In this document: positions 17,601 through 64,000 of the stretch, in pieces
Numbering within the stretch: position 1 is the stretch's first letter
Layout of the letters: every line of letters starts with the position of its first letter
Notes under the pieces: model-generated
The model's database searches: none
What the model saw: the letters and a program-made list of their open reading frames with translations, nothing else
Told to the model about the DNA's origin: nothing
Translations under genes and position numbers: made by a program
Assembly (NCBI GenBank): GCA_012845835.1
Contig: JABAKD010000003.1
Location: 2,600,212 to 2,664,211 of the forward strand
Length of the DNA: 64,000 nucleotides
Source: Undaria pinnatifida
Lineage: Eukaryota; Sar; Phaeophyceae; Laminariales; Alariaceae
Direction: 5' to 3'

Positions 17601-20600
17601 TTGTCCAGAAGCTGGAAAGTACAAGTGTGAGAAATATATATATATGTATATAGGCAGGGTACAGTTTGGTACGTTAAGGAAACGCGTCGACTCGATATTC
17701 AGGCGGGTAGCGTTTGGCACTGTTAGAAAACGCTGGGCCTCGATATTAGGCGTGGTACGGTTTGATACTGTGGTATTCTCTCTCCGTTACGGATCACTCA
17801 ATGTAAGCATTGGATTGGATGAGGCCTCCTGCGTCGGCAGGAGGTCCTCGCCGGTGGATATATCACGCGCGCTGAGGGGGGGCTCGGTTAGGGTACCCTC
17901 AGCGCTGCAGTATTTCCCTGAAACGATCGCAACTTGTATAAGAATACTCAATGTAGGGTGGGTGGGACGGTCTTGAGTGTTTAACCCATTCCTCGTGTCT
18001 TACCGAGGGTTTTGCGGGGGCTGCGATACAAGTGACTGCACTCGACGCGGTTTTCAAGTAAATGTCATTAAAGGTGTGGTCAGAACCTCCCTCCCATAGT
18101 TTGTATTCATCTGATTGGATGACGATATCGCTGTTGGGAAATGCTGCGCCTCGATGCATATAGACGGGGTGCCGCCTGGTACTGTTACAAAACGGGCTGC
18201 TCACCTCGCCACGCCCCGCTTCCCTGATGAACGTCTCCGTTGACCTTGTTGCACAGTGCCGTGACTGCCACAAGGCTCGAAAGTATGCAAGACGCTTCGA
18301 GGCCGTGGTCCCAACTGACGCAGATCATTTGTGAGTCGTTTTGCTCTTGTACTATTTCGTCGTCGCTTCATTCGTACCACTCTCTCCAGAGTTCAAGTCC
18401 CGTTTCGGCCTTGGGGCAAACATGTTCTCGTGAACAAGTGGTTTTACTTGTTACGGGACTTGTATTTATTCAGGTCCTTTTCACGGGTTAGGTCGAGTCA
18501 AAGTAACCCGTCCCGACTCGCGACACTTGAAAAACTTCTGACCCGACCCGACTCATCCCGTGAGATTTGAAACACCTCTCGACCGGACTCCACTCGACCC
18601 GCGAGATTTTGATAACCTCCTGACATGATCGGCGGGTCGGGTCATGACCAGGGAAAAGCCCTGGTATTTTTGGCTGCCCCTGCAAGGCTTGTGTCTGGAC
18701 AGGGTGGTTTATTCGTTAGGATTAGTGAAGCCTCTCGCTGCGGCGTGAGACCATACCCGTGAGTTCTCAACGTCAAAACAAAACATTGTGATAATGCCGT
18801 TATTGCTTTGCGTCTCTTCTTTCTGCCAACTTTGGTTACCAAGCCAACGAAGTGGTGTCATCTGACGGCGGTCACATGTGAGTTCTATCCGCGAAAGAAA
18901 TGTATGATAGTAGCGCAACTGACGCCAATCACTGACTGTTTCTGTTCTCGATGCAATGCTTGAAACCTGCATGCCTGAATGCGCGATCTATGACGAGACC
19001 TCATTTCACGATACTGGGAGGGGGGGTAACAATAGTTCCGATGCGGCGGCGGCGAGGACCCGGGGATCGGCCGAACCCGTCCCCGGGATGTAGGAGTAGA
19101 GAGCTGATCGAGCTTCTCTTTTCCGAAACACGAAAAAAACAAAAACAAAGCCTGACTACTTCTCGTGCTCGTACTTGCTTAGCCTTTCTTTTCGCTCTGC
19201 CTTCCTTTCGCGCCCGCTGGTATAGTTTGGAGAAGTGTTTTCCAAGCCCATAGCACGTTATTGATTCCTCTTGTTCCAGTGTATCTATCCCCTCCTTTTT
19301 GGCCCTTTAGAACTGCAAATTTACCCACGCTGATTTCTAAAGCTGTGAGTCGGCCACACGTGACGACTATTAACTAATCGGTAGGTGCCGTTAGCCGACT
19401 AACTGACTGTCGTCGGCAAGTCGGCTGGCGAAGTCAACTGATGGCCAGCCGACTTGTCGACTTAGGTAAGTCAGGCGAGTGAATCGAGTGAATCGAGCCA
19501 ATTAGCTCCCCCTGGCGCCCGAAAGGGAAAGAAACGCGTCCCGCATTAAGCAATTCTTCCTTCCTACATGCATGGAAACGGGAAAAGTCGGATAGTCGGA
19601 GCACGTTCGGGAAACGACCAGCTATTAGTCCGCCTGATAACTAGTTGGTGACTTCAGTCGTGCTAACTCACAGAATTTAAACCGAGTCAAAGCTATAAAC
19701 TAATTTCGAGTGGTTTGTTTTAAGAAACGTGGTTTCAGTCCTGAGGGGGGGGGGTGTACTCAGTTTTTGCATGGCCGTAGTCGTATGACCATAGACCCTC
19801 GCATCCCTACTATGCTGGGACGGAGCACGTTGGGTTTTCACCATCCAGGCAGACATTGCTTGCACCAAGCGCGAAGCGCCGTGAGGTGTTCGGCGAGTCG
19901 CATGAAGGGTGAACTGCATCCTTCCAAGAACCGTTCGTAAGACGGGCTTCGGCACCTTGTGCTTACTTGCCTATGGATGACAGCGCCAATGACTTACTTT
20001 GTTCTCTGGTTTGGCCACTCCAGAGACAGCAATGCAGTGAGTGCTGGGGTGTTTAGATTCATGTAGACGCGTGCGGCGATAGAGACGGCACTTTTTGGCT
20101 ATTTTGTTTTTCTGGATGACGGGGCTTCTTAAGCCACAACTTTTTGAAGGCCATTCTTCAATTATATGATGAATGCTTTTTTATTACCTAGGCCATGGGT
20201 TCAACTTTTTGGTGGCCCGATCTGTGTACGGCACAGACACCTTATTATTTCAACTTTTTTGGTGGCCCTCCGATCTGAGTCCGACACAGACAACTTTTTT
20301 TGGTGGCCCGATCTGTGTCCAGCGCAGACACCGTATTATTTTAACTTGTTTTAGTGGCCCTCCGATCTGAGTCCGACACAGGCACTTGTTTTTTTACATA
20401 AGGTCACGGGGATCCCACAGGAACATTTTGGGTAGGAGCTCGTATGGAGACATTTCGCGTACATATGAAAGCCGCTTGAACATGGAGTATGGCATCTGCA
20501 AACAAGATCCTTACTTCGAAAGTTGAAAAAAAAAGGTGCAAAGATCAATTAACACAGAGCTTTTCAGGTGTTTGTACCCCTTTTTTGGACTCCACAACTT

Positions 20601-22491: not shown

Positions 22492-25400
22492 CTGCATTTG
22501 TTGTCGACGCGTTACGCTGGGAAGTGAAAGTGCCGACCAAAAATATGGTGCTGTTTGTACTCGCGATTTCGGTGCGCTCTCGAATATATACGTGTTCACT
22601 TTAGTCCTGCCTCCTCCTGCTCTTGCCAGTTGGGGCGGAAGCTTGGGCAATGTTTCCGGATGGGTGCATCCCGACAGACGTTCGGGCCCCAAGATGTTGA
22701 AACCTACCTTGTTCCAGTCTTGGATCCATCTAATTTGATCCCGATTTTTGCGTTTTAATGCGCGCGTTGACTGCTACCTTAGCTCAGCACAAATTAATCC
22801 ACGTCGATAAATAACCACCTCGAATATTTATTTTATTTCATTGCATCCCCACCCCCCCACCGTATCAATCGCTTCACTTTCCGAAAGGTACCGGAAACGC
22901 GTGGCCTGGAAAACTGCACAAGCGCGCGAGAAGCGAACGGAGATCGAGGCGAACCCGCCGCTGTGCCGGGCTTGCGAGGTAACTCGATGCAGACGTACCT
23001 GGTACACCCGAAATCAGCGTATGATAGCGGGGATTTAGGTTCGACGACGGCCGACTGTCACGGTTTCGAGAGAAAAGAAAGTACTGACAAGAAGTTGAAC
23101 GCTGAGCGAGCGAGGTAACCCTTTGCAACGGGTACACCTGGTACACACGAGAAACAAGATTGCTATAGCGGGAAGTTATGTTGACTATTCGTTTCGAGTC
23201 AAGCTCGCTGATACGTGGTTGGACCCGCCTACCAGGTATGTGTGTAGTATACTCCTTGTCTGGGTCTCGGAGAATGTCGTGCGCTCTCGACTTTTTCTCA
23301 TCCATGGATTTACATTCTCGCACTCCCCCCTCCCATTCCCTGACTCGTTTTGTCTTGATGGCGTATTTACTATGTTTTGGGCTGTCTTGGTTCTCCAGGG
23401 GTTGCCTCAGGACAGCGTACATGCGGAGAGTATGAGGATGACCAATAGAACCCCGCCAGCTCGCAGTGGACGGCCCGCCGGAGTGTTGTCTTCCATAAGG
23501 TGAAGCTGTCCCTCGCGACACTGCATGATGCGTGCGCTCCGATTGGGATTCTTTGAATTTTCGCCCAGTAGTTTTGAAAGAAGACGCCCAGGATCATGGA
23601 AATGCGTCGCCTCCCTGCACGATGCGTGCGTTCCCTGTGAGAGCTTTTGTTCTGGCCTCGAGTGGTCTTGAAAAATGACACCCAGGGTAATGGAAACCCA
23701 TCCATGAAACCGAGTTGGTGTACTTTTTTGTGTACACTTGCTGTGAGAGTTGTTATTCGTGCCTCGAGCGGTGTTGAAAAAAGACACCCAGGGTCATGGA
23801 AGCCCGTCGCCTCACTGCACGATACGCTCACCTTGAGAGCTTTTGTTCTTGCCTTGAGTGGTGTTGAAAAGGACACCCAGGACGATGGAAACCCATCTAT
23901 GCAACCGAAGCTGCATTCTTATTGGTGCGATCCCTGTGAGATTGTATGTTCATGCGTCGAGTGGTTTCGAATAATGACATCCTGGGTGATGGTTTAACCC
24001 ATCAATGAATCCGAAATGCTACATTTTGTTGACACAGTTTCTTCAATATGTACTTTTCATTAGTGCGGAGTGAGTTGGGTGCGAGGTATTTGGTTGGACA
24101 AATGGCAAGCTGGCGGATACAGGAACACGTCGTCTCACGACCGTGATATATATGTTTTTTCGGAGCTGAACATGTCTATTTGTTGACAAATAATTGTTCG
24201 CTCCAGACTGGTTATCTGCATCTGCAAGCTGTTGCGCGAGGCCATCAATTGCTCGTCGCAGGTACCCAGCACCCGGCAGTGCTGTGTTGTGTTTGTCGCA
24301 TGTAGTTGGATTACTATACAGGTGCTTGCGGTTTAACGAAAAGGGTTGATTGAGTTTGTGTGCTGATACTATCGCCACGATGGGATTCGTGGGGGTCCCG
24401 TTCATAGCAGGTGTTCGGAATGTGACGGCGCCAGCGGGAACGGTCCTGAAAACCAGCTTCTCTTGTGCGATGGCCTGGGCTGCACGAATGCTACCCACAT
24501 GTTCTGCCTCGAGCCGATCGTGACCCAGGTGACGTGTGTGTACCGTGCGGTTGGTTTTTTGTGGGATTTTGTGGGTCTTGTCCTTGACTCGGGCCGCGGG
24601 TCGGGCCAGGAGATGTTGAAAATCTCGTGGGTGGATTCGGATCGGGTCAGGCGGCGTTCGAAATCTCATGGGGCGGGTCGGGTCGGGTCGTTTCGGGAGG
24701 TTTTCAAATGTCACGGGTCGGGACGGGTCACCTTGACCCGACCCGACCCGCCAGAAATGACATGACCCGTGAAAAGGCCTGCTTTTTTTTTGCCCTTCTA
24801 GGACTGCCCTCGCTTTTTTCCGGATCAAGTTCTTCAAATTGGCGTGTATTTGTTTTGTTTTTGTTGTTACTGTAGTAAAGGGGTTAGATCAATATCTTGT
24901 GCTGCACGTATGTTTTTAGGGACAGACTACGTTTTATCTGATACAAGGGCGCACGGCCAAGAAAAGCAAAATACTACCACGCTACCCGGAGGGGTGACTT
25001 TCCGGGTGGCTACCTCCACCGCACCTGATCCCGAGGGATCAACTCCGTTCGACATGCTCACGCCTCCGTGTACAACGGCAGCTTGCGCTGCTGGATGAAG
25101 TAGTAACGGTGACCACCGATAGGGACGGCTCGCGCTGCCGCTACCACGTGAACTGAAGGATACGCCAGCTAGCGCTGGATTGCGAATGCAATTGAGTTAA
25201 ATTGACACGAGGCATGTATTAAAATACGTGACAGTGCGGTGAGCTTGGGTTTTATGTTCCACATGCGCCGGAGGATAAAGAATAGGGGGGGGAAAAATTG
25301 CCGCACCCCCCAATAGGCCAGGTCAGGGTGAAAAACAAACCGGAGCGCTGTGTTCACAGGATGAACTAGGGAAATCGCACTTTTTTCATCCCCCCCCCCT

Positions 25401-28400
25401 ATTTTCCTGAGTTTCGGAACGCCGCCCCTGTCTGGCTCATTCTGACCTTGTGAGATGATTGTTTCCTGTAGAAAATGGGTTATCGGGGCCAGGTTTATAT
25501 CACATGTTGTCCAAAATGCCCACTTTTTTGGGAGGAAACATGCCTGGAATTTGTTTTTGAGGATTGTTTGCAGTGGCAGTAAAAGGGTAATCGGGACCAG
25601 GTTTGCGTCGCATGTTGTCCAATGTATTACGATTTCTTAATTTCACGAGCAGGGCTGACGAAATATCTCGTTTTGCGCTTCCCAGCGACTGAATCGTATA
25701 GAAACCTTGGGAGGAATCCCGGGTGTGCAGATATAAATTTGCACACTCGGTTTGCAAGCAGGCGTCACCGTCAGGCGACGCCCTCGTGGGTGGTCGTTTC
25801 TTGCTTATGGATAGTTGACCGTCACAAGGTCAGCTAAACGTCGCTGAAATATTTGCCGTCAATAAATGTGTCCTACTTTTCTCTTTTCAACCGCCTCCGA
25901 TCCCCCCACCCTCCCCAATTTCCCTTTTTATCGTCCTGTTCTGTGTGGTGGGGAAAACGAGGAGCAGGTGCCTCGGCTGCAGTGGTTTTGCGATCATTGC
26001 CGGATGTCTGAAAATGATGTGAAGACATCCAAGGGATGCGATGCCTGCGGAGACTCTGCGGATAACGACAACATCCTGCTTTGCGACGGTTGTGACGGTG
26101 AGCGAACCTTGAGCCCTTCGCATCCGCTTATGGTTCACAAAGAAGAGTACCAATCGCTTGAAGCTCGCGCAGTAAGACATTTTGTAGCTTTTTTTGAGCC
26201 CCGTATGACTTGTGTCTGCTTAACGGTGCCGTTGGATGGTATTACGACGTATGCACGCACGGTTTGCCCGCATCTCGTCTTGCGTATCCCTCCCGCCTCC
26301 TTGTCCTTCTTCAGCCCCGTCCCACTGCGACTGCCTACAGATCCCCTGGGGTGCTCCGTCTCGAAAGGATGCGTGGTCCAAGGCTAAGGCAAACGGCCAA
26401 TGAGTAACCTCACCCCCCCCCCCCCCCCCCCCCCCCCCCCCGCGAAACCGGGCGTGCTCCGTCTCGGCTTTGTTGAGATGCGAAGGCCTATGGTCTAAGG
26501 ATTACGATGCACGATATTGAATACCCCCCCCCCCCCCTCCTGTGCTCCGTCTCGCAAGGGGTGCGTGGTCAATGGTCAAATGACTAAGGCGAGCAACAAA
26601 TGAGTACCGCCCCCCCCCCCGCCCTCCCCGGCTTCCGCCTCGTTGTCGTTGTCCACAGCCCGATACCACTGCGGTTGCGACTGATGTCCCTCGGATGGTA
26701 TTCCGAAAGACGCAAATGCTTCATGGCTTGACTTCGTGGTCTGTTTTGTTTCTGTAGCTCTTCGCTAATGACTGACATGAAAAAAAATATGCATGCACGA
26801 TTAGCCGGCAATTCGTCTCACGTACCCCCCCCCCCGCCCTCCTCCCGCCTCCTCGTCCTTCTCCAGCCCCGTTCCACTTCGACTGCCTGCCAGTACCCTT
26901 GGACGGCATCCCAGAAGACGTTTGGTTTTGCCCTCGCTGCGTCGAGAGCCAAGCGATCCGCAATTCGCCTCACGATGGGATAACCGAACACGCATCGAAG
27001 GCCTACCGTCGCCGCGGCCCTCTGAAGCACTCGCGAGCGGGAGACAGGAAGGGAGAGAAACGCGAAAGAACCAACTCCGGCGCTGGTTGTGCTGGAGGGG
27101 AACCGGCGAAGAAACGGTCGGCCGTTGCGGCGAATGGAAAGGTGAGGGTTTTTGCTTCTTTCTACGCATCGTGGCATTTTTACTCGGGTTGATTTCCTGT
27201 CAGCAAATGTACCGGTACTAGGTATCGCTTTTCCGGGCAGAAAAAATGCGGGAAGGGCTTGACCCTTGACTAAACAACTTTACTTGTAGCCCGGGGGTTG
27301 TGCTCTGAGGAGTCAGTAGTCTAAAACGAAACCCCCTCTCCATGCGGGTTAGACGGTACCAGTGCGCACAATGATTATGGACCGAACTCGCCCTTGGTAC
27401 AATTGTCCTGTTCACACTGGCAGCATCCAGGGGAATCCCATATGTTCGACTTCCAAGAGGGCCCAATTGAAGAGTTGCGCATGTCCATGACACGCTCACG
27501 CTGTCGCCAAAGCCTTGCGCCAAATAGGTGTGAAATTACAGGTGCACGGAAAAGAGAACGAACAAGTGGTCCTTCCCTCTTGCTATCAAAGATCACTACA
27601 TCTGTAAACGCGCGCCGCCGGAGTATGACGCAGCTGAATATTAATATCGACCCTTAAATATATCGAACTCACGGTTGACATATTGGAAACAACTTTTATA
27701 GACCACGGTGAGCGAGAGACTCCGCGTATTGTTATAATGGGAAGTTTGGTTGACCCCCTTCGGCACGTAATAAAGGGAAGCAACGGTGAACCGGAAGGCG
27801 AACGAGAGACCCCGCGTACTGTCACAATGGAGATTGATTGGCCTCCTTTGGCACTTGAAAAATGGAAGCAACAGTAGTGAATCGGAAGGCGAGGGGGAGA
27901 CGCCGTGCATTGTCACAATGGAAATTGATTGACCCTCTTTGGGAACTAGAAAAAGGAGAAAAAGTGGCAAAAAGTGTGATTGACCCCCCTTTGGGGACGA
28001 AGAAAGGAAAAACATCTATTTAAAAACGTGACGACTGCAGCTTCGGAAGAGGGAATACGTAGATTTTGTCAAGGCGTTTTTCGCTGCGTAGTGGAGATAC
28101 ACGTATTTTTCACTTGAGAGGGGAAATTGACGACAATATATGATGGTAGGAGCTTCGGAAAAGGCAGTACCTATATTTTACTATTAACAGTTTCGGAAGA
28201 GGGAGTACCTAGATTTTACCAAGGCGTTTTTTGCTCCGTAATGGAGATACACGTATTTGCGGCTTGAAAGGAAGGGGAAAAGGGACGAAGAAAAATGACA
28301 GTAGCAACATCGGCAGAGGGGGTCCCAATTTTTCGTTTCATATCGTTTATTGCGGCGGCGGGGACGGAAAGAGATGGGGGATGAGGATAGAGAAACATGC

Positions 28401-31400
28401 GAGGGGATGACAGAGGTGCCACGCGTGCTCTTCTTTTTTTCAAAATGAGCAAAAATCTCACTCAAAACCGACTCTGCCTGGGATCTGCTTGATGCAGCTC
28501 TTGCGCATCATATCATAGCAATAAATATATACCAGGTACAGTAGGTAGCCCCCTGTAAGGGGCCAAAATGGGTCAATATCATCAAGCCCCTCATCTATTT
28601 CAATGCGGATAGCTACCTTGCTAGTGGCACAGAGTATCAGATAGTCCATCGTAGCCTATCGATTGCGCTATTGTTATCGTATCATTCGTACGAGTAGTCA
28701 TCTGGTATGCATAGCTCGTACCTTGTAGGACACAGCATGGCGTGCTTTTGTACACGACAGGTATTCACGAGTGAATACGCACGGTAAAGGTGGTCAGAGT
28801 ATCGGATTAGTTCGTTGTTAAGAAGAGGTACTAGTCTTTGGTACACAGTAGCACGAGGCGCTTCAGCGATACTAGTGCAAGGAGTGATGTGTACGTACGT
28901 ATCAGACGCACGTACCAGACACCCACGTATGATATCTATCCTCATTTGTCATCAGTTCTGCGGAGCTTGGAGCTTGGTCGCAACGTCAGACTAACCTCTG
29001 CTGAGTGCTTACCTCTCGTGCGAGATCTGGCATGACCCAGAGCTACCGCACACAGCTACAGGGGGCGTATCCCCTCTTGAGGTTATGAGCCTCGCCTCGC
29101 GTAAGCACTGAGACCTAGCTGCGCGGTCCCGGGGGCATGAGGCGCAGCGACCGAGACCACGCCCACTTGTGGAACCCGAGCTGCTACTTTTGCTGTCAGT
29201 TTCAAAAGTCAGAACCACCAGGACCACGACTACGAGCACGTACAACAAGGAAATGACCTGCAACGAGGGACGACAACAACACAAAGGCAAGAGCCACCTG
29301 GACCACGACCACGACCACATACAACAAGGAAGCGACCTGCTACGAGGGACGAGAACATCAGTTGCCTCCACCGGGCGGGACGATCAATAACATCTGGACC
29401 TGGCGTTACGAAGAACGACATCCATGGACGAATACGAAGAGCTGCCAGGAGCATCGGCATCATCTGTTGCTGAGCTGCTTCTAGGTGCAACAACGAGTAT
29501 GTGGATGGTTTATGAGTGAATCCTGTACCTGTTACATCCCGTATGAAAGCCGTTACGATCAACACCTCGTGCAACGGCGAACTTCTTCTGCTCTTACGAC
29601 GAACAACGTTCTGCTGTTCGCATACATAACACGTGAGCGAGTGGTCGAAATGTAGCTTGCGAGAACGAGTGGCCGATATCTAGTTGCTTTTGAGTACGTG
29701 GCTCGTCGCATCTCGATTGGGATTGCCGGTGGAGAAGGTTTGCTGGAATTGCCACACCCTTTATCGCTTTGGGCTGCTGGAACAACGATTCCGGAGAACC
29801 GGAAAAGCATCATTATCGTTAAGGACTGCAAAGTTGCTGAACGTCATCGTCGTTTTGGGCTGGACAGGCATGTTCGCTTCCGGGATTGCTTCATCGTCAC
29901 CATCTGGATCGGTGGAAAGGATATCCACACCATCCGGGGTCGCACCTACATAACAGCAAGACTTATGTGCTTCGTAGTACCGCACGTCTTCTTTGTACGG
30001 GGGGGCGGTCAGAAACGTGTCTAGGCTGCTAGACTATTTGAGCAACTGTTTATTTTTGTAGTAGAACCACACGTGCTCTTTGTACGGGGGGCGGTCAGAA
30101 ACGTGGTCCGCTGCTACGGTACGTACCTGGGTGTTACTTATATTTCTTTTTTTTAACAACAAACTGATGACTGAAATATTATTGCACGTTTTGCTTCTGT
30201 AGTTGATACTTATTGAGAAGATGCACTGGGCTGTACGAACATGGTTTTTCATTTTGTGTGTAAAACAAACCATGTGTTGATCGTTAACACAGCTGAACTC
30301 GTCTGGAATTCTTTCACATAAGGCCACTATTGACTGGCGTGGTACTTTTTTTAGAGTACGGAATACCGCCGTACCTAGTATGTCTGGTAAATGTATATTG
30401 ATACCCACGCAGGTTCCAAGGTTATGTGTGTGATATTTTCCGGTTTGCATGCTATTGACAGTCCATGCGTCAAACCCGTCCGTCACACCAGTCATTTGCC
30501 TTCACGTTGCCAGGTTTTGCTTGGTAGTTATTGTGTTAGAATGATTGATAATCCATCGAAACTGAATCACGGTAACGGTTAATGTTGTTTGGACGCGGCA
30601 AAGGAGTATTGGGATTTTGTGGCGACATTGCCAGTGATTCTCGAAAATATGCACACAAGTAGTCCAGACAAGTACTCTGACCAATTAACGAGCGTCAACA
30701 CTTTCTGACAAGCAGCGTGAACAAGGACACCAATAAGTTTCAATCAAGCGTACAATGTATCCAAGTTGTTGAGTATTCCTATTCTATAGTTGAACAAGTC
30801 AACTTACTTTATGTCGCTTCCATCGCGGGGTCGTATTGAGGATAAATTACCTTGCTACTGGTACACGTATCAGTTTGTACATCGTAGCCCTTCGATTGCG
30901 CTGTTAACCTATCATACGTAGTCATCTGGTATACGTAGCTCGTACCTGGTAGGACACAGCAGCATGATGTGCTGTTGTACACGACTGGTGTACACGAGTG
31001 GGTAGATACGTAAGTGTGTTCAGAGTATTGGATCAGTTTGTTGTTAAGGATAGGTACTAGTCTTTGGGACAGAGAAGCACGAGGCGCTTCAGCGATATCA
31101 GTGCAAGGAGTGATATTTACGTACGTATCACGCACACGTAACAGACACAGGCGTACCTCGTGGGGTCATAGGAATCTAGTAGATCCGATATCGCGGATAT
31201 GCGACACACTTGCGTTGTTTGAGGCATTCGCCCGAAATCTGAAAACAAGGTTCTGGTGTCGTTGAGTTTGTGTGTATTCTTGTCCTATCGAACAAGTAGT
31301 GTCTTGAGCTGTGATCTATCGCGCGAACACCATACACACTCTTGACACAACTCACCAGCACCACCTTTCTCTCTCCGTCTCTTCTGCGAGACCGCGCTAT

Positions 31401-34400
31401 TTACAGACACACCAGTGCCCTTGCGGCATCTTTTTGTCGTCAACTCTGCGGAGTTTGGAGTTTGATCGCAACGTCAAACTAACATATGCTGAATGCTTAC
31501 CTGTCGTGCGAGATCTGGCATGACCCAGAGCAACCAGACATAGCCACAGGGGCCGTATCCCCTCATGATATTTTGTCCCTGTTTTAGGACCTAAGGTCCC
31601 TTAAACTGGACCGTACCGTTTGAAGAGACCAAAAGTTCCTTAAAAGGGGCCATAACGACGGCATATTGAATCGGACAAAACAGGATGGCGCGAGGGTGGG
31701 TTTCTCCGCTGGTTGTAGAGGTATGGGGCGCTGTGATTGTCAGGCAACCGATACAGGACAGTGAGAAAAAGACACCACCTGGAGGCTCAGGTCGATTCCA
31801 TCGTGTTTTTTCCTCATTTTATTATTTCCGCTGCCCGGTGCACTTCTTCTCCCTCTCTGTAATTCACAACGGCGATCGCGATGTAGACAACCCTGACGTA
31901 TTTTCATTGACTGCCTCGTATCCCGTATGCCATACATTCACGCTACCTCGGTCCTATGTGTGAAGTTTTATGAACGTAGCCTCCTGTTTTTCTTATTGCC
32001 TACGCCGACATGACATAGTTTATGCAGCATTCAAACGCACCCACCTTTTTTTCTGCTCACGTCCTATACCCCCGCATGGCATCGTTTGTGCAGCTTTCTA
32101 ACGCGCCCCCCTCTTTTTTACTGACTGCCTGCCTCGCATGACATATTTCCCGCTACCTCAGCCCAGCTTTCTAACACGAACCCCCCTTTTTCTCGGACGG
32201 CCTACTTCTCCATGACATATTTTACGGTAAACTGTTAGTCCGACAAGGCTCAACCGCCCCCGGTCGATCCCAGACTCTGCGCTCGCGGCGAAAATTGCTT
32301 CCGCGGAAGCTCCCCGGTGAGCCGAAATCGCACGTTCTCTGCTGGTCGGCAGCGGGTTGGACCAGGGCGGAGAGGGGACTGTTTGGAGCACGCGGGGGTT
32401 TCCACGGCAGGTGGGTTTGTCGTGGCGGGGAATGGTATCTCTTCCGTCGAGCAGGAGATTCAGGAAAGCAAGTGGGAGTGCAAATCTGTGACGTGCGAGG
32501 GACGGGACAGCTTGTATCACAGTAGATGTTTGGAGCGGCAGAGGAATTGGGTAGCGGAGGAGGAAGTTGGAGGGGGGGCGGACGAGAAGAACGGTGTCAA
32601 AAAAATATCTTCGCCGGTTTCGGCTGCTGCTGCTGCGGCTGTTGCGGTTGCTGCTGCTGCGGTTGCGGCTGCTGCGGTGGCGCGAGAGAACCAGAAAGTC
32701 CCAGTTGCGGTGAGCGCTACAACGACGTCTTGCACAGCAGATGGAGAAGATGATGATGAAGTGCAGTACATTCCTTCTCCACACGCCAGCGGTATTTCTC
32801 CCGCCTGCGGCAAGACTGGTGACGCTTTTTTGCCGTCATCGCGAGCTCAAAGCTCGGAAACATCGGCGCAGCATCCTTCTGGCGCTCTCGGAGAGCGATT
32901 AGCCGCGGTTAACGAAGGAAAATCGTTGGTCGCTGGTGCCACCGGTGGTGGCGGTAGTGTTGGCGTTAGCCCCGGGATTGATAGCGGAACGGGCGTTCCT
33001 GCTAGCCTCCGGCAAGACTTCGAGATGGCAGTAAAGCAAGGCGATCACGGAGAGGCCGGAGAAGCTGCAGCAGCAGCGGACATGGGTGTAGATGCTGCAA
33101 AGGTGGAAGAGGAGGTGGCGGCGGGGGCTCCCGAACCAAGCGCTGGGGTGGCCATTCAGAGGAACGGGAGAAGGGGAAGGAAGAGGGAGGGTGGCCGATG
33201 GACTACTGACCTCTTGTGTCCGATGTGTTATGCGATTGTGGTGCCGGAAGAGAAGGTGGTGGAGGCTGCTCGAAGGTGGGTAGGTGCCAAAGCCATGCTA
33301 CGGTAGGGGTATTATTCTTTTTTTCAAATGGGGAGCTCTCAGTTATCGCATGAGAAGCTCTTACATTCTTCGCTTGAGCTCTCAGGATTAGCACATGAGG
33401 AGCTCCCAGATTCCTCACATGACACGCTTTCAGATTCTTCAAACGAGGTACCCTCACATTCTTAGCCTGAGGAGCTCTCAGGCTACTCACATGAGGGGTT
33501 CCGAGATTCCTTAGATGAAGAGCTCTTGGGTTCCTCGTGTGAGGAACTCTCAGATTTCTCATGTGAGGGCTCTCATGTTCCTCATGTGGGCAGCTCTCAT
33601 TTTGTTCACGTGAGGAACTCTCAGCTTTCTTGCATGAGCAGCTCTCTGGTTTATCGCGTCAGGAGCCCTCATGTTTTTCACGTGAGGAGCGCACAGATTC
33701 CTGACTCGTGCTACGATAGAGGTGCGAGCAATTTTCGTCTGAAATGTTTTCTGAACGACGGAGCCCCTTAATCCATGATCATTTGAATGCCATTCTTGTT
33801 TTGCAACTTGTTTGTTTTTTTAATACCTAAGCCATGGGTTTTGTCATCGGGTTGCACTTTGAGCTTACTAAAAATAGGGGGCGAGGTACTCTGTGGAGCT
33901 GGTCAAGGGATTAGGATCCTCAGAAAAAGGTGCTCATTTTCCGTAGCACGTGCCTCCTCGTAGGAGAAAGTTTCAGAGTGCTCCCGTGATAAGCTCTCAC
34001 GCCCTTCGCATGAACAGCTCTCAGATTACTCACATGAGGAGCGTTCAGATTCCTCGTGTGGGGAGCTCTCAAAATGCTCAGATAAGGAGTTCTCGGATTG
34101 TGAGGTCTCAGGTTTCTCGTGTGAGAGCTCTCAGGTTTTTAAAATGAGGGGTTCTAAGATGCCTCGCATAGGGAGCTCTCAGATCGCTCACATGAGAATC
34201 TCTCGGATTCCACAAGTGGGGAGCTCTCAGATTGATCACATGAGGGCTCTCAGGTTTATCACAAGGGGGGCCCTCAGATTCATCACGCGTGAGCTATCAG
34301 GTTTGTCACATGCGGAGCTCTCAGATGCCCTACAGGAGGAGCTCTCAGATTCCCCACAGGAGGACTTCTCAGATTCATCGTATGAGGAGCTCTCGTACAG

Positions 34401-37400
34401 CTCTCATACTTTTCACATGAGGAGCTCTTAAATTCCTCACATACGGAGCTATCATGAAGAAATTCGCACCCAACAAACTAGTGCAAAAGCACGAACCTTA
34501 GAATTGCACCATGCAGACTATCGATACCTGCTGTTTCTGTTTTGTTTGGCGTTGTTTTTTGTCGCGGTTCAGCAGACCATTAATGCGTGCTGTTTCTGTT
34601 TTGTTTCCGTTTATTTCTCGCCTTTTGATTCCCCCAGGAAAGTCCGTTACCAAGCTTTCAAGGCGGCTCTCGATAGATCCTTTCAGCGGGAGTTTGGGAG
34701 GACAAGGTCAGTTATTTTGGCTAAGCGCGACTAATATATCGCCCCCCCTCACCCCGAAAAGACTTGCTTATATGTGCACCCCCTCCGTGCGTGTGCGGAA
34801 TTTCATAGTCCTACAGTAAAATGTTTCTTCGGACGCTTTTGCAGCATGCGTAGTCGGCGAAAAAGTGTTTTGGACACGTGTGCAGTATTTGCAAATAGTA
34901 TCACGGCGCACACAGTCATGTAGACACGTATGCGGTATTCGTTGATAGTCTCGCGGTGAACAGTTCTTTGGGCAGGGATGCAGTACGAGTCCATCTCTCG
35001 TCTCACGGTGCACAACGTCATTTGGATACGTGTGCAGTTTTCGTCTACTCTCATTTTGGACAAAGTTATTTGAACAAGTGTGCAGTACGAGTGCATACCT
35101 AGTCTCACTATGAACGTCATAGTCTCACGGTGAACATCTCACGGTGGACATCATAGTTTCACAGTTAACAAAGTTATTCGGACAAGTGTGCAGTCTTCAT
35201 AAGTCTCACGGCGGCCAAAGTTATGTGTACAAGTTTGCAGAATTCTTGAATAGTCCCGCGTTAACCAAAGCTATTTGGTCAAGTGCACACATATCACAAC
35301 CTAGATCGTCGAAATCATCTGGGTCCTGTATCTGCCGTGATTAGATGTTGTACGGAATCTGTATACTTTTAAGCACAGATCTAACCCGGCAAACGTGTGC
35401 TATATAACGCAGATCGTACTGTTCCCGCCCGGCAACGTGAGCTAGACGGTACATATCTGCAGAGAGATCTAACCCGGGAAATATGTCCTAAGTCATGCAG
35501 ATCGTACGATTCCCGCCCGGCAACATAAGCTAGACGGTACAGATCTTCAGATCTTCCCTGAAATATCTAGCTTATCAAGTGGGAATAGGTGATCTGTTCG
35601 GCTTGTGGACAAGCGTGCAGTACGGGTCCTTATCTCATCTCGCGGTGAACAACTATCGTCTCCGTCGAACATGCAAATCAATGTCTTGAAATTGTATGAA
35701 TCGATTAGATTCCGCCACCCTCCCTATTCACATATTGTTTGCGCCAGTGTGCAGTTTTTCTATATACATCGTCTCGCGTTGAAAAATTACATTTTGGACA
35801 CGTGTGCAGTGTTCATAGTGTCACCTTGAACGTTATTGGGAGACGAGCAGTTTTCACATGCTTCGTGCTTCGTATTGTCCCTGTGAAACAAATGATCTTT
35901 GGTCACGTGTGCGGACCGAAATCGGTGATTTGACAAGGTACTGTATAGACGTGAAGAAACCAGAAATACTAGATTCCCCCTCTACGGTAGCTTATATCAA
36001 CTGCTGTAGTAGTCTTCATTCTATGGGTGCGCATGCTGCATGAGTACTACCGTTCACCGGCACAACGGAAGCGCGGCATCTTGCCTAAAATCGAGTCGAA
36101 AACTGAAGCTAGAAATGTGCGAAGCTGCTGTGCGGCATTGAGCGTACTGGGTACGTGTGTTCTCTAGTCTTGGCGTGAAAGCGCCTCACACGCGGCGTTC
36201 GCTCTATCATGCCTCTGACGCGCCTTATCGCTGTGCGCCCGGCGATTTTCCACCGCCCTACGTTGTGGTCGTACACAGAGAGTGCGTTGAGGCGGACCGA
36301 GCACTCGGACTGAGGGGCTCTATTAACACCAACGGGACTCAGGGTCTCATGTAAGTCGGATTCATGCTCTTGCATTTTTCGCAAACTTTCTGCCACACCC
36401 TACCTTCCTCACAGCCGATGACCTTGGCTACGATCTACGATGGTCATTATTCACTTTTAGGCTGCCCTATTTAGTACCAGGTACTTGTTGTTGCAACATT
36501 CAGTAAGCTCGTGTTTTGTTGAGTTTTGCGATATGCGCGGCCGCCGTAGAGTTTGTTACGCCGCGCCTGCAAAGTGTGTTGTAGTCCGTTGTTTTGTGAT
36601 GTACGGATCTACTCGCGAGAGTGACGTGGGCAAAAATGGGGGTACACTACTATACCTGGTATGTTATACTATATGTACAATACTATACACAAGCTTCCCC
36701 TTCGAGATGGGTTGACCTGATATCCCAGGAGCGTCATGAGTCGAAAAGGGGGAACACGTTACAATCATATGTACATGTATGAGCTACACGGCACGGCTGT
36801 TGCTGCTGCTGAATGCTTCGTATACCTAGTATGAAGATGAAGTCCGACTATGTGTGTTTGGCTACTGTTGCGTTGGACGTGTTAATTATGTACTGTTGTC
36901 GTGGCTCATCTGCTGCTGCTGTGCACCAGCCACACGCACATACACCGTGACTACTGGCACAAAGGCGAGCGCTTGGAGCACGGTTGCCGTTGTATTGCTG
37001 CTGCTGTACTGCTGTATACTGGTTTGTGGCTGCAAGGCTGAGCGGCTGCTTTTTCCAACAACCGAAAAACCCTCTTCTTGATAGTCTTGTGTGCCTATGA
37101 CAGCGCGCACTCCACGTACAGAAGCACACATATATACACCCAAAAGCACCGTCCGTGGCTGTCACTAAAGAGTGCTGCTGCTGCGTAGCAAACCGCAGAG
37201 AAGGTAAAAACAATTGAACTGATGATGTTGTACAGCGGGCGGGAGAGCAGAGCGAAAACACATGTGTGAGGGGAGCGGGGGCTACTTGAAACATATCCAA
37301 AAATTGTGGGGTGTTCCATGCACCTGCTCGTCTCAACCGAGCGGAGCATAACCCCTTTTGACAAAAAGAGCCAGTCCAGCAATGGTAAATGTTAAAAGCA

Positions 37401-40400
37401 CCGTCACGGAGCTCGACTAGGATCCAGACATGCGTCGTAATGTACCGACGACCCCCTTGCTTGCCCCGCAGCCGAAACCTTCGGCTGCCGCAGAAAAATT
37501 AAATTAGAAGTGCATATTTTACGTAGACATACTATACTACTATGACATACCGTAGCCTTATTTCCTGCTAGTCGGTTACCAACCAGCTTTCTGTACTCTT
37601 AGTTAGTATGCTTCGCTTCTCTAGTACCTGTCATGTCCTTGTTTCTCACCCGAGTGCGAGTTGGACCTTAACCCTACCCGATATATCAAATATGTATCCC
37701 CCAACCAAACACGCCTCCTATTTACAGTAGAGGCCCCCCAGTAAGGCGATGGTGTGCCGGAGCAATATGATCCGTTGGGTGATACGCGGACCTGCCTCTA
37801 TGCAAAGAGTCAGCTAGAAATTCGTAAAACTCAAATCTCACAGCCGTAGACTTTTACTCTAGGCCTCTCAATCGGCAGCGGCAGTGTCGTGCCGTCTGCT
37901 CGGTGCTTCTGCTATACTTGCTCAGCTAAGTACGAGAAGCTAGATGCACGCGAGGAGAGTGCGGACGCCTTTTTATTTCCTTGCTTCTGACCATAACAAG
38001 GTACGTACGTCCGTGGAGGAGTCATCCCGCGGTACATAGAGGTTGCAGTTTTGGGGTTAAAGGTTTGTTCTTATTTTTGGTCTTGTTCTAACAGGTTGAG
38101 CTCCTCAAGTGTGGACCCATCGGTTAGTATGGTATTATTTCGAGTACACTCGTTTTTTTACTGAGTTGGTCGGATTGCCCGAACGAATGTCTTCGAAGTC
38201 AGGTTTCGGGTGATGATGGTGAGGTATTGGGCAGCTCCTCAGAAAATTCTTGGAATCTGGTACACCTCTACCGTGGGATGAGTCACAACCGATGACTACT
38301 AGTGGTTAATTTTGTCGTATGCTAGTACGACTGATATCTCATTTGTTCTGCGAACTTGAAGAAATATATTGCTTTACTATGTGTATGTCACGGCAGGTAC
38401 GGGTCTATTTACGAAGAAGTGGTGGACTTCATGTTTCGAAAGTGTGGGCTGACGGCCGTCGACCGTTTCCTCGACATCGGCAGCGGGATTGGCCAGATCG
38501 TCACGCAGGCCGCTGCGTGGGCCGGCTGCCCCTCGGCGGTAAGTCCAGTTACACGCGTGTTATGGAGGTGGTTGTGTTGTATTACTTTTATCCGTGACGG
38601 ATCACTCACATGTAAGTGTTAGATTTGGGTGAGGCCTCCTGCGCCAGCAGGGGGTCCTCGCCCATGGGTAACCACGCGCGCTGAGGGTGCCCTCGGCCGA
38701 GATACCTTCAGCGCCGAAGCGTTTCCTGGGAATGGTCGCAATTTCTACAAGAATAGTCAACGTAGGTTGGGTGGGTGGGACTGTCTTTATCAGGTACTGG
38801 TAAGTATTTGGCTCGTTCCCCGCGTCTTATCGAGGTTTTGCACTACTTTTTTATAAAAAATAAAATTAGGCTTCAGCTGTATGATGGAGAATTTCGTTGA
38901 AACTCACCTTTGCAAGCCACATGTCCCCCTTTTTGTGTCGTTTCCGTTGAGTTGATTGGCTTACTTTGGTGCCTAGCCAACTTGTAGTGAGTAATCGGCG
39001 ACAAATAGCGAGCCAACTCACAGCCTTTCCCATCGCCAACTACTCAACTGGCCCCTACGCTTTTCACGCCTCTCTTCTTGTGTCACGTATTGTACAGGGC
39101 GTGGAAGTGGTCCCGAAACGACACGCCGTCGCAGTTCGTCTTCTGGAAGCGCTAAAGTTGGAGGCTAAAGTCGCACTGGACCCTGATACCTCGGAGGCTT
39201 TGCTGTACACCGACGCCCTCGCTCGTGCTAGGCTAATCGAGGTTGATATTTTTTTCTCCCGTACAACATCCATCAATCACCAAACACAATAACACCAACA
39301 CAACACATGTTGCAGTTTTTTGTATGTTTTTAAAAATATATTTCCCTATGTATGCCAGGCTTATCAAGGTGAAACATTATTCTCTTCAGAACATCTGCCA
39401 CCAAAACCAAGCACATCTCCCGCACAACAATCAACAAAAAAAGCAAACACAACTACCAAAACCGAAAACAACAGCATCTCCGGTACAACAACCACCCAAA
39501 ACAAACGCTCATGCCTCGGAGGCATTGCTGTACACCGATGCCCTCGCCCGCGCCCCGGACTGATGGAGGTGATGCGTGTTTCGTGGTACGTAGTGTTTTC
39601 TTATTAATTTGATTTGGGGCTTTAGGCGAAATATATTGATAATTTTTAGTTTTTCAACTTTTGGCAAACAAAAAAACTACCAAACGCGCGGTGATTCGGT
39701 TGCATCAGGGAGACTTCGTGGACAAGTGGGACGAGGTGAAGGATTGCACCGTGATCTACCTCAACAACACTGGGAAATGGTTCAAGGCCAAGGCGGTGAG
39801 CTTGTCGTGCCGACGACTCCGGTATAACACGCATGATATAACACACTCCTTGGGATAACCTGCAATATGTCACACCCCTTGGGACAACGCGCAACGTAGC
39901 ACACCACTGGGGTAACGCGGAAGATTGCACGCACCCTGGAATATAACCCGCAAGATAAAATACCACCTCGGATAGCCCCGCAAGATAGAGATCCCGGGAT
40001 AACGTGCAAGATAGCACTTCCCCTGAGACAACGCCCAAGGTAACTGATCTCCTGGGATAACGCGCAAGATAGCACACCCTCTAGAATAACACGTAAGATA
40101 TCACACCCCTTGGAATAACCCGCAACATAACACACCCCCTGGAATAACCTGCAACATAACACGCCACGTCGGGTAACCCGCATGGTAATACACCCCCGGC
40201 AAACGTGCAAGATAACACTTCCCCTGGGGTAGCGCGCAATATAACACACCTCCTTGGATAACCCGCAACATACCACACCCTCGGAGATAACGCGCTAGGT
40301 ACGCCTGGGATAACCCTCCACACAATACACGCAGGAGATAACTGACCTTCTGGGATAATGCGCAAGATAACACACTCCCGGGATAACACGTGAGACAACA

Positions 40401-43400
40401 GCCCGCCCTGGAATATCCCGCTACACACACCCTGGTATGACCCACACGATAACGCACTCCTGGGATAGCGCCCAACATAACTGACCTTTTCGGATAAGGC
40501 ACAAGATAACACACCCCCTGTGATGAATGTCCTAGCCGATTTTCTCCCAACAACGGGGTCTCACACGTCGAAAACGGAGAAGTTATGAAGCGTGCTACGG
40601 TCGGGGCGCACTTAGTTTGTTTGTGGCTCCGCACTGAGGAGCCCTGTAACTCACCCGAAAACCGGCTTTTGAGAACATATGCATGTGCAACCCGATAAAT
40701 GATCTTTCGACGTTAAGATACACAACGAGGATTTTGTTTTTGTTCTGCTCATGCCATCTTCACGCTTTTTCTTTCTCTTCTTCCCTCCCTTTTGCTCACC
40801 GTATCTAATATCTTCACACTTTTTTCTTTCTCTTTTTCCCTCCCTAGACGTAATTCAGATCCAGGGTCGCTAAGCAGGCTCCCATCCCCCCTCCCCACTA
40901 CGGTACGTGCCTTCTTCTTTATCCCCGAGAAGACTCCGGCCCTTTCTGCCCTCGTCGACTCGCGTCGAACGTTAATAGTATTAATAGTATTGGATTATGC
41001 AAATTTTATTACAATGACGTTGGGTAGCTCCTCAAGGAAGGAATCCCCGCCAGTTACCAAAAAAGTGTTACACAGTGGTGTGTACCTATTCAAGACGCTT
41101 TAAACCCTCTACAACTGGAAACCCGTTTTTGGGGCCAAGTTACTTGAAATTAGTGTAGGGAGGGGTTTTGGGGCTCTCAAGGGGTTAAGACCGTTCGGGA
41201 GATAAGACGAGGTAACCCAAAACTTGGGGTCCGTCTGTACTCCCCCTTCGTGAAGCGTGGCGTTTAGACGTCGAACGCGTGGAGTTTGTAAAAGCTCGCC
41301 AGTGTATTGTCGTCGATTGCATGACGTGTTTATGTTCTCCCCCCCTCCTGCTCCGAGGAAACCCAACGTTCTCCCACCCGGCACTGTAGGTATACGGGCG
41401 CAGTGCCTATACCCGAGGAAAGTTATATAAGGATAAACTATTATGATTGGCTTATTGACAGGAAAATTCGGCATACTCGCCAAGTGAAACACGAGTTTTG
41501 TAGGGATTTTATAAGGATAGACAATTATTATTGACGGTGATTGCACCGAGCTAGGCGCTGCGATTGCGGCGCTACTGTGGGACTTGCCCAAAGGTGGCCC
41601 ACCTCCACGGCGCACATCCGATATATGGAGACGCGCAGCTCAGACCCCCAGACAAACGACGCCGCGGCCGGCGGCCCAACGCCATGCTGGTGTAATGGTG
41701 CACCCGTGCTGTAGTGTGGCTAGTTGCGTGTATCGGGGCGTGCGCTCTGTCAATGTAACGAGGTGGGTAGAACAGTCAGGGACAACGAAGTTTGATAAAC
41801 GTCCCTCTTTTTGACACAGGTCATCAAGCACTTGCGTGTGGCTACTCCACAGCAGCAGCACCACCACCACTACCACCCCCAGCTTACAACAGCACCAGCA
41901 AGTAGCAGTTTCGTTCCCATGGACTCGGGCCCTCGCGGCTGCCAGCGGCAGCGGACTGGCGGAGTTCATTCAAAGTCACAAAGTAGCAGCAGCACTCCTT
42001 CGTGTACGTACGTGAAAATCCCCAAAGCCATCTAAAACCAAGGACTTTTCCGAGCCTTCGCCTGATCCACGAGACTTCGCAGGTTTTGTGTTTGCTTGCG
42101 TGTATACCCGCTCAGCGGAAGCACCAACACCATCACCATCACCACCAGACTACAACACCAGCAGGAGCCAGACTATTGCCCGTGGTCCCGGGCCTTTGCG
42201 CCTGCCACAGTAGCGGGTAACCCCTGTAGGCCGAGTTCAATCGAATCCACACAGCAGCACAGATTACGTGAACATCTCAACAACCAGCCTATAACCAAGT
42301 TATAACGAACTCTCCCCTGGAAAACACCGCGATAATTAATTCCTTAAAAAGGCTCCCCAGGTATAGGATCGGAGCCGATATGCGAGGGTCTATGGTCGTA
42401 GAGTGCCGCCATGCATGTATTGAGGACACACACCCGCCCCCCGCAAACGCCACTTGGTGTCGAACAGGGCGACCCAGCAAAAGCGAAGGACAGCTACGAG
42501 TCGAAGTTGGTTGGGCTCCTTCGAGATTTGGAGCACTCTGTGACGCTCATCACCATGGGCATGCTGCACTCCCCGCCTCAGGCTTGGTCGCAGACAGAGT
42601 GGACATTCGCGTGGTACGTATTTTACATGACATGTGCGCCTTTGAATTGCGTTGATATGGGTACCTTGATATTCATAATATGCTCCTTTTTTGTGACATT
42701 CGCGTGGTACGTGATTATTGCATGTCATATGCACCTCTGTATGACATGCACGTAGTACGTATTTGTTTTGTCACACCAGATATAAGCAATTTGCACTTTT
42801 GTAACGTTTACGAGGTATGTCTTCACATGTCTCCTGATATGCACATTTGCATGTAGTTCATATAATTCTTCGAAGTATGTATTTAATAAAAATATTTTAC
42901 GTCAGCCATGAGTTCGAAAATTTCGGGTGAATACTCATCTTAGCAAGCTGCGTTATTGGTACTTGTAATATACTACGTGGGTGAGTTTTTTCTTAATGGG
43001 AGGGGTCCTATTCTTTTGTTCCTTTCAAAAAAATGTATATACTGGTATATTAATATATAAAAAATATTTGAAGGACGTCAGCCGTGAGTTCGACGAATTT
43101 CGGGTGAATACTCATCTTTGCACGCTGCGTTGTTGGTACTTGTAATATACTATATGGGTGAGCTTTTTATTGGGAGGGTTTGTTTAATATATATATATAT
43201 AGACTATATATATGTTTTGTTTTTCTCCACCACAAAGGTTAGTGTTGGTATTTTTACTTGAGGTGAGGAATTTTTAACTAGATTTAACATGATATCTATT
43301 TATTAATTTATTACTGTAGTTTCCACTATACTGCTCTATCATATGCATGGTAGATGGTTTATTTTGTTTTTCTCCGCTTTAGTATCGGGAGGAGTACGAA

Positions 43401-63509: not shown

Positions 63510-63689
63510 CTGGATCATTTGAACGTCAGGAAGAGCGGATCGTTGGAAACGGTGGAAGAGCAAGGTTCTCGAAATGAGCCTGCTTTTCAATCGACGGGCA
63601 GAACTAATTGTTAACCAGCCATGGTTCCCTACCATGTAGCGCTAAGTGCCAACTCGTTGTTACAGCAGAAGCAGAGGAACGAAGCATTC

Positions 63690-63740
63690 TGCTCGAGTTT
63701 TCTCTTTCGGTCTTCCTGCTTTGCCTAGATCGTTGGAACG
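63690..63740 (-). pseudogene. Decayed partial copy of the nudC N-terminal exon
   Basis: The minus strand gives ATCTAG/GCAAAGCAGGAAGA then CCGAAAGAGAAAACTCGAGC, about 90 percent identical to the start of the exon at 63,509. The acceptor-like AG is kept. Homology stops after about 45 bp. Confidence 0.75.
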
Positions 63741-63924
63741 GGAGAGAGTGCAGAAATAGCAAAAGCGTGCCTTAGTCGGGTAGGTGGTTTCGCGGGTATG
63801 GTACCGGTAATGGGGCCAATACCAAGAGCATCAGACCACCCAGGTACATCATTCAACATATCATTTCTTGAGCAAATACTTGCCAAGATGAGTTTCGACT
63901 TTTGAATTGGTCGTGATTCACAGC

Positions 63925-64000
63925 TAGTTTCGACCCAGTTTCGACCCTTAAATTGATCGAATTCACCACTGAACATTTGAAATAATTTTGGAATATACCA
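63925..64000 (+). repeat. Family E dispersed repeat, edge copy
   Basis: TTTCGACCCTTAAATTGATC, GAATTCACCACTGAACATTT match 13,690 and 27,648. The copy runs off the window. Confidence 0.5.

What the first reader, a model, noticed from the sequence alone, without database searches (positions are those of the whole stretch)
24411..46375. DOT1-type methyltransferase fused to tandem PHD fingers and Cys modules
Phase-consistent exons join two canonical PHD fingers (24.4-27.1 kb), a stretched third finger and a DOT1 core with LDIGSGIGQ, GVEVVPKR, GDF and LNN motifs. Animal DOT1L and yeast Dot1 lack PHD fingers. A self-contained reader plus H3K79 writer would be a new arrangement, or one restricted to this lineage.
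Basis: partly seen in the sequence, partly recalled or inferred. Interest (0 to 1): 0.8.

Follow-up and report, generated by a model that had tools for sequence, protein, structure and literature searches.

The report
Algal PHD–PHD–DOT1 histone methyltransferase gene
A large intron-rich algal-type gene appears to join two histone-tail-reading zinc fingers to a DOT1-type histone methyltransferase in one protein, a reader-plus-writer arrangement that animal and yeast DOT1 are thought to lack and that may bear on how brown algae use H3K79 methylation to silence genes.

Summary
The core of the finding holds. Nine GT–AG exons on the + strand (24411–42613) join into one open frame of 643 residues. 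Pfam finds two PHD fingers (3.4e-19, two stretches) and a DOT1 domain (4.2e-13) in it; a later start for exon 9 extends the DOT1 match to 17–157 of 205 (4.2e-15). GSG, GVE, GDF and NN motifs are present; YGE of the solved DOT1 enzymes reads YGS. The stretched third finger, the terminal Cys exon and the end at 46375 are not confirmed; both gene ends are missing. PHD–DOT1 linkage across a 5.3-kb intron is likely, not proven. PHD1 is closest to the ATXR5 PHD and PHD2 to KDM5B PHD1, both readers of unmodified H3K4, but PHD2 keeps only 5 of 9 named contact residues. Preferred mechanism: the PHDs hold the H3 tail and place DOT1 on chromatin without H3K4 methylation. A 2026 paper already reports brown algal DOT1 subfamilies with novel domain associations: a new variant of a known kind.

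The parts
22888..22978 (+). candidate upstream exon (YRKRVAWKTAQAREKRTEIEANPPLCRACE)
   Evidence: AG/GT flanks, GC 0.66 against 0.48-0.49 around it; ends in phase 0, so needs a further exon before exon 1; 158 of 3787 stop-free null windows have as high a codon score. Adding it with the next candidate did not raise the PHD score (33.3 against 36 bits). Tentative
23204..23235 (+). candidate 32-nt exon between the upstream candidate and exon 1
   Evidence: one of two segments that passed a simple AG/GT and phase filter. Tentative
24411..24528 (+). exon 1: first part of PHD1 (CSECDG...LLLCDGLGCTNATHMFCLEPIVTQ)
   Evidence: acceptor cag, donor gtgacg; PHD1 Pfam 7.3e-09
25968..26097 (+). exon 2: end of PHD1 (25968-26000) and first part of PHD2 (26037-26097)
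   Evidence: phases fit on both sides; Pfam PHD, two stretches
26867..27141 (+). exon 3: end of PHD2 (to 26940) and a basic linker
   Evidence: donor gtgagg; GC 0.62 against 0.49 in the next intron; unspliced PHD half 8.9e-04, below cut-off
32455..33275 (+). exon 4: low-complexity linker with a Cys/His pattern at 32473-32529 and CPMC at 33217-33228 (possible third finger)
   Evidence: 355-aa open frame 32239-33303, longer than any + strand frame in 30 Markov-1 simulations of 64 kb (longest 251); first in-frame ATG at 33025; zinc-finger identity not supported; 5' boundary uncertain
34638..34706 (+). exon 5: lead-in to DOT1 (KVRYQAFKAALDRSFQREFGRT)
   Evidence: pyrimidine-rich acceptor, donor gtcagt, phase fits; not distinguished by codon score (2148 of 7033 null windows as high)
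38397..38538 (+). exon 6: DOT1, YGS loop and LDIGSGIGQ (SAM site)
   Evidence: Pfam DOT1 3.5e-09 unspliced; the DOT1 segment matches solved H3K79 methyltransferases, best 3.3e-06 (7k6p), then 3.7e-06 (1u2z) and 1.3e-04 (6jm9)
39098..39241 (+). exon 7: DOT1, GVEVVPKR
   Evidence: inside the Pfam stretch
39709..39795 (+). exon 8: DOT1, GDF and LNN
   Evidence: inside the Pfam stretch; 11 of 3936 null windows have as high a codon score
42468..42613 (+). exon 9: late DOT1 part; preferred start at 42489
   Evidence: with the later start Pfam DOT1 extends from profile position 131 to 157 and rises from 54.9 (no exon 9) to 56.3 bits; with the earlier start 53.7 bits and no extension; no H3K79-enzyme match of its own in the PDB

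Best explanation
This is part of one large, intron-rich nuclear gene, most likely of a brown alga. It encodes a protein with two tandem PHD fingers, a long low-complexity linker and a DOT1-type methyltransferase domain, and is probably a divergent paralogue of the expanded brown algal DOT1 family. Shown: the exons, the domain matches and the motifs. Inferred: that all exons are in one transcript. Most likely mechanism (inferred): the PHD fingers, above all PHD2, hold the N-terminus of H3 and so place the DOT1 domain on nucleosomes without H3K4 methylation, where it methylates H3K79. This would do in one protein what AF10 does for DOT1L in trans. It would fit the published depletion of H3K79me2 at the starts of expressed genes, where H3K4me3 lies.
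For: Nine exons in phase and one open frame. PHD 3.4e-19 and DOT1 4.2e-13 on the join. Motif order YG-GSG-GVE-GDF-NN. PHD1 best PDB match ATXR5 PHD 3.8e-09; PHD2 best match KDM5B PHD1 2.1e-11. The ATXR5 PHD recognises unmodified H3K4 (PMC7718874, passages); KDM5B PHD1 recognises H3K4me0 (PMC4225485, passages). Carried over the printed alignments, PHD2 keeps KDM5B L325, L326, D328, P347 and W351 (A1, R2 and part of the K4 contacts), and PHD1 keeps ATXR5 G31, L37, L39, C40 and P60. Neither PHD has an aromatic residue two before the zinc His, where I place the H3K4me3 cage Trp (Ala and Pro; placement from the recalled BPTF sequence). In brown algae H3K79me2 is depleted around the start sites of expressed genes in five of five species while H3K4me3 is enriched there (PMC13076208, section 7 part 1), and DOT1 is expanded with novel domain associations.
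Against: PHD2 keeps only 5 of the 9 KDM5B residues named as contacts: D308 (the K4 hydrogen bond) is Thr, Y310 is Lys, E321 is Asn, G349 is Asp. PHD1 keeps 5 of 7 testable ATXR5 contacts: D44, which contacts H3R2, is Thr and G62 is Leu; V23 lies outside the exon. So preference for unmodified K4 is not assured. YGE is YGS, so activity is uncertain. The 5.3-kb step from exon 3 to exon 4 is not backed by transcripts or relatives, and an in-frame ATG at 33025 could start a separate DOT1 gene. Codon usage gives little help. Anticorrelation of gene-body H3K79me2 with expression was less pronounced in three of the five algae. Organism not identified.
Confidence: 0.5

Rival explanations
1. Two neighbouring genes: a PHD protein ending after 27.1 kb and a separate DOT1 gene that starts downstream, for example at the in-frame ATG at 33025.
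For: 5.3-kb gap with no Pfam family above cut-off. The frame of exon 3 runs unspliced to a stop near 27190. ATGs in the exon-4 frame at 33025, 33082, 33223 and 33295. The 5' boundary of exon 4 can be chosen to fit.
Against: Exon 3 ends at a strong donor with a fall in GC from 0.62 to 0.49. The exon-4 frame is open for some 260 codons before its first ATG, which a start at 33025 would leave unexplained. Same strand.
Confidence: 0.25
2. The DOT1 domain is catalytically weak or dead and the protein acts as a chromatin reader or scaffold.
For: YGE to YGS, against YGE in 5 of 5 alignments printed. The 2026 paper describes a 'degenerated DOT1 domain' in one Ectocarpus member. The last 48 positions of the Pfam model are unmatched.
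Against: GSG, GVE, GDF and NN motifs all retained; Pfam score well above cut-off.
Confidence: 0.3
3. A decaying copy (pseudogene) with partly duplicated exons.
For: Partial direct copies of exon pieces lie in its introns: 62 nt at 84% of the exon-3 start region and 49 nt at 86% of exon 7.
Against: The nine used exons are open, in phase and keep the eight zinc ligands of both PHDs and four of five DOT1 motifs.
Confidence: 0.12

Closest known systems
Brown algal DOT1 subfamilies DOT1.1-DOT1.5 (Vigneau et al. 2026, PMC13076208)
   Same: DOT1 methyltransferase domain with added domains, in an expanded family
   Different: The text does not name PHD and the figure was not available; subfamily membership could not be tested
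Yeast Dot1 / human DOT1L
   Same: DOT1 core with GSG and G(V/C)E, matched by sequence (that 7k6p and 1u2z are yeast is recalled, 1nw3 is named DOT1L there)
   Different: No PHD in these (recalled); YGE is YGS here; best match E only 3.3e-06
AF10-DOT1L complex
   Same: PHD-containing reader tied to H3K79 methylation; AF10 is a weak match of PHD1 (3e-05)
   Different: Two proteins in animals; AF10 PZP reads unmodified H3K27; no zinc knuckle or extended PHD was recognised here
ATXR5 PHD and KDM5 PHD1
   Same: Nearest solved relatives of PHD1 and PHD2; chromatin enzymes carrying a PHD reader of unmodified H3K4
   Different: Other catalytic domains (SET for ATXR5, recalled; JmjC for KDM5); several contact residues differ here
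Phytophthora infestans DOT1-like PITG_00145 (PMC4030286)
   Same: Stramenopile DOT1
   Different: Listed with DOT1 as its only domain

Membership tests
DOT1 (PF08123) | Profile match above curated cut-off | tested here: met
   54.9-56.3 bits against 23
DOT1 (PF08123) | SAM and active-site motifs GSG, GVE, GDF, NN | tested here: met
   positions 48-138 of the typed segment, inside the Pfam stretch; that these motifs define the family is recalled
DOT1 (PF08123) | Loop YGE as in the solved DOT1 enzymes | tested here: not met
   YGS; YGE in 5 of 5 alignments printed; I do not know whether this Glu is essential
DOT1 (PF08123) | Methylation of nucleosomal H3K79 | not testable with these tools
   needs an enzyme assay
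PHD finger (PF00628) | Cys4-His-Cys3 in both fingers and profile match above cut-off | tested here: met
   69 bits for the join, two stretches; PHD1 alone 36 bits against 24. PHD1 has two extra residues between its third and fourth Cys
PHD finger, third | Cys4-His-Cys3 | tested here: inconclusive
   second half of a pattern only; no Pfam support and one PDB match at E 4.3; first Cys pair not found
H3K4me0-reading PHD (KDM5B PHD1 type) | Acidic contact to K4 (KDM5B D308) | tested here: not met
   Thr at that position of PHD2; the position lies four residues before the aligned part, so the placement is by count
H3K4me0-reading PHD (KDM5B PHD1 type) | The nine named H3 contacts D308, Y310, E321, L325, L326, D328, P347, G349, W351 | tested here: inconclusive
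   5 of 9 identical in PHD2 (L325, L326, D328, P347, W351); residue roles, letters
H3K4me0-reading PHD (ATXR5 type) | Named contacts V23, G31, L37, L39, C40, D44, P60, G62 | tested here: inconclusive
   5 of 7 testable identical in PHD1; D44 and G62 differ, V23 not testable
H3K4me3-reading PHD | Cage tryptophan | tested here: not met
   Ala in PHD1 and Pro in PHD2 two before the zinc His; role, placement from the recalled BPTF sequence
Brown algal DOT1.2-1.5 | Orthogroup placement | not testable with these tools
   no algal sequences held

The most novel reading that the evidence does not exclude
A self-targeting H3K79 writer: tandem PHD fingers in the same chain read H3 tails free of H3K4 methylation, so that H3K79 methylation spreads only where H3K4me3 is absent. 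It would be a cis-acting circuit that took over part of the silencing role of the lost Polycomb and DNA methylation systems in brown algae.
Probability: 0.22. Interest if true: 0.8.

Novelty: new variant of a known kind. Interest (0 to 1): 0.5.

Why it matters
The surveyed brown algae lack the PRC2-specific subunits and, apart from DNMT2-type tRNA methyltransferases, DNA methyltransferases, and H3K79me2 is linked to repression there, whereas in animals it goes with active genes. How DOT1 finds silent genes is open. A DOT1 with its own H3-tail readers gives a direct, testable answer: absence of H3K4 methylation licenses H3K79 methylation. It would also show reader and writer joined in one protein where animals use a separate adaptor.

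Tried and rejected
Relatives: one scan of viral contigs and one of genome contigs of bacterial and archaeal species with the DOT1 segment found none (14 and 71 stretches matched a pattern, none confirmed). This is expected for a eukaryotic gene. No genome is held for the window.

Third finger: Pfam, PDB and a search for a missing exon with a Cys pair gave no support. A possible exon at 41.82 kb (VIKHLRVATP...) was left out because splicing from exon 8 to the later start of exon 9 gave a longer DOT1 match; the version with that exon was not scored. N-terminal candidates 22888-22978 and 23204-23235 did not improve the PHD score. Codon usage as proof of exons was too weak (the null for exon 4 used 90-codon windows against its 273 codons). 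AF10-like PZP module: AF10 is only a weak match and no zinc knuckle was recognised.

Coverage of the Pfam frame scans: + strand 801-60202 (to E 1; to E 0.01; to E 0.05) and minus strand 54101-63997 only. Domains split by introns can be missed by them. Minus-strand genes elsewhere were not tested.

The draft also used the missing ATG before 33025 without saying that 33025 itself could be a start. For these I lowered the best explanation from 0.55 to 0.50 and the novel case from 0.25 to 0.22, and raised the two-gene rival from 0.22 to 0.25.

Full report
What is there. Stop-to-stop frames and three-frame views show short, GC-rich coding stretches between AG and GT on the + strand. Nine of them join in phase: 24411-24528, 25968-26097, 26867-27141, 32455-33275, 34638-34706, 38397-38538, 39098-39241, 39709-39795 and 42468-42613. 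The joined frame gives 643 residues without a stop; the other two frames have 22 and 16 stops. The eight introns are 467-5313 bases long with GC 0.41-0.58, against 0.52-0.63 for the nine exons.

Domains. Without any splicing, Pfam finds DOT1 in the 38.4-kb exon (3.5e-09, above the curated cut-off) and a PHD half in the 26.9-kb exon (8.9e-04, below cut-off). On the joined protein PHD scores 3.4e-19 in two stretches and DOT1 4.2e-13. DOT1 exons 5-8 alone score 54.9 bits over profile positions 17-131. Adding exon 9 from the acceptor before 42489 gives 56.3 bits over 17-157, while the earlier acceptor gave 53.7 bits and no extension. I therefore prefer 42489, although its acceptor has a weak pyrimidine tract; the gain is small. 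In the PDB the DOT1 segment matches H3K79 methyltransferases, best 7k6p (3.3e-06) and 1u2z (3.7e-06), recalled as yeast Dot1, then 6jm9 and others (from 1.3e-04), human DOT1L by recall. In the five alignments printed YG, the glycine-rich SAM loop and the acidic residue of GVE/GCE line up; the third residue of YGE is Glu in all five and Ser here. The part from GDF to the end of exon 9, and the part from GVE to that end, find no H3K79 enzyme on their own, only one weak unrelated hit each.

Is it one gene? For: same strand; no Pfam family above cut-off on the + strand from 801 to 60202 other than DOT1, and PHD on the join (several matches below cut-off); exon 3 closes at a donor and needs a partner downstream; the 355-aa frame that holds exon 4 is longer than the longest + strand frame in each of 30 simulations (longest 251); its first ATG is at 33025, so the part before that needs a partner upstream; exons 4, 5 and 6 fit each other with split Arg codons. 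Against: the simulation keeps only dinucleotide steps, and this window also holds long frames in low-complexity sequence on both strands, such as 340 and 370 residues on the minus strand at 8.5-9.9 kb and 225 residues antisense to exon 4. The ATG at 33025 could itself start a separate DOT1 gene. The 5' end of exon 4 was chosen among several acceptors, and no transcript or relative was available. Codon usage trained on six domain exons (each left out when scored) gave as high a score in 55 of 2170, 95 of 1703, 50 of 208, 39 of 210, 2148 of 7033, 91 of 1370, 156 of 1215, 11 of 3936 and 63 of 1215 stop-free null windows for exons 1 to 9: helpful for exons 1 and 8, not for exons 3, 4 and 5.

The third finger. 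Exon 4 carries C-x4-C-x7-H-x2-C and, about 230 residues on, C-x2-C. This could be the second half of a PHD stretched by a low-complexity insert. Pfam does not support it; the one PDB match is a PHD finger, but at E 4.3; no exon with the missing Cys pair passed a simple filter. I leave it open.

What the PHDs may read. PHD1 is closest to the ATXR5 PHD (3.8e-09) and PHD2 to KDM5B PHD1 (2.1e-11). Both known domains bind unmodified H3K4 (PMC7718874 and PMC4225485, passages seen). One search carries the residues named there over the printed alignments. PHD2 keeps L325, L326, D328, P347 and W351 and loses D308 (Thr), Y310 (Lys), E321 (Asn) and G349 (Asp): 5 of 9. PHD1 keeps G31, L37, L39, C40 and P60 and loses D44 (Thr) and G62 (Leu): 5 of 7 testable. 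Where I place the H3K4me3 cage Trp, PHD1 has Ala and PHD2 has Pro. So binding to the free H3 N-terminus by PHD2 is plausible, K4me3 reading unlikely, and strict K4me0 preference uncertain.

What is known. Vigneau et al. 2026 (PMC13076208; outline, section 6, section 7 part 1 and passages) report loss of PRC2-specific subunits and of DNMT1, 3 and 5 in brown algae, expansion of DOT1 into DOT1.1 and at least four further subfamilies with novel domain associations, a degenerated DOT1 domain in one Ectocarpus gene, and depletion of H3K79me2 around the start sites of expressed genes in five of five species, where H3K4me3 is enriched. The anticorrelation of gene-body H3K79me2 with transcript level was less pronounced in Undaria and the two Desmarestia species. 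The strings PHD, reader and zinc finger do not occur in its main text. Library searches: DOT1 with PHD finger and stramenopile (0 papers), with brown alga and H3K79 (5), with PHD, domain architecture and chromatin terms (69, 25 listed), with PHD and diatom (7), with PHD and dinoflagellate (2), with PHD finger and alga (8), and Ectocarpus with DOT1 (6). No title or abstract start listed names a PHD-DOT1 protein. Of these papers I looked at passages of seven: PMC13076208, PMC7784034, PMC13289920, PMC4751559, PMC4030286, PMC4822330 and PMC11057875; none of the passages names one. Most papers listed were not opened, and the library lacks most subscription journals. An oomycete DOT1 is listed with DOT1 as its only domain. 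In animals AF10, which has a PHD-zinc knuckle-PHD module, binds DOT1L (PMC8257627, passages).

Organism. No genome is held. Large introns, about 50% GC and a diversified DOT1 suggest a brown alga; this is inference. The spliced genes and the PHD and DOT1 domains show that the window is eukaryotic.

Verdict. A real PHD-PHD-DOT1 gene core, probably one gene, incomplete at both ends. It is a new variant within an already reported lineage-specific DOT1 expansion, with a testable reader-writer mechanism.

Noticed in passing
window 58217-58074 and 55740-55651, minus strand: Two pieces of a CS (p23/NudC-type) domain, profile 1-51 (4.3e-07) and 50-78 (0.0058, below cut-off), on the minus strand: probably a neighbouring co-chaperone-like gene split by an intron of about 2.3 kb.
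   Followed up: no
window 26289-26350 against 26841-26902; 39505-39553 against 39180-39228: Diverged partial copies of the exon-3 start region and of exon 7 lie in the adjacent introns (84% over 62 nt, 86% over 49 nt): decayed tandem exon duplications or alternative exons.
   Followed up: partly
window 7850-9997, + strand: A 716-residue open, low-complexity frame with no Pfam family above cut-off. It could be a long 5' exon of this or another gene.
   Followed up: partly
window 45207-45354 and 45490-45637: Inverted repeat with 148-nt arms, 75% complementary, 135 nt apart; looks like a small non-autonomous transposable element.
   Followed up: no
window 16052-16175, 18514-18624, 24597-24689: Minisatellite with a 41-bp unit rich in CGACCCGACCC or its complement appears at three places, one inside intron 1 of the gene.
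   Followed up: no
window 39838-40295: Degenerate 29-bp tandem array (about 16 copies) just after exon 8 inside the intron.
   Followed up: no
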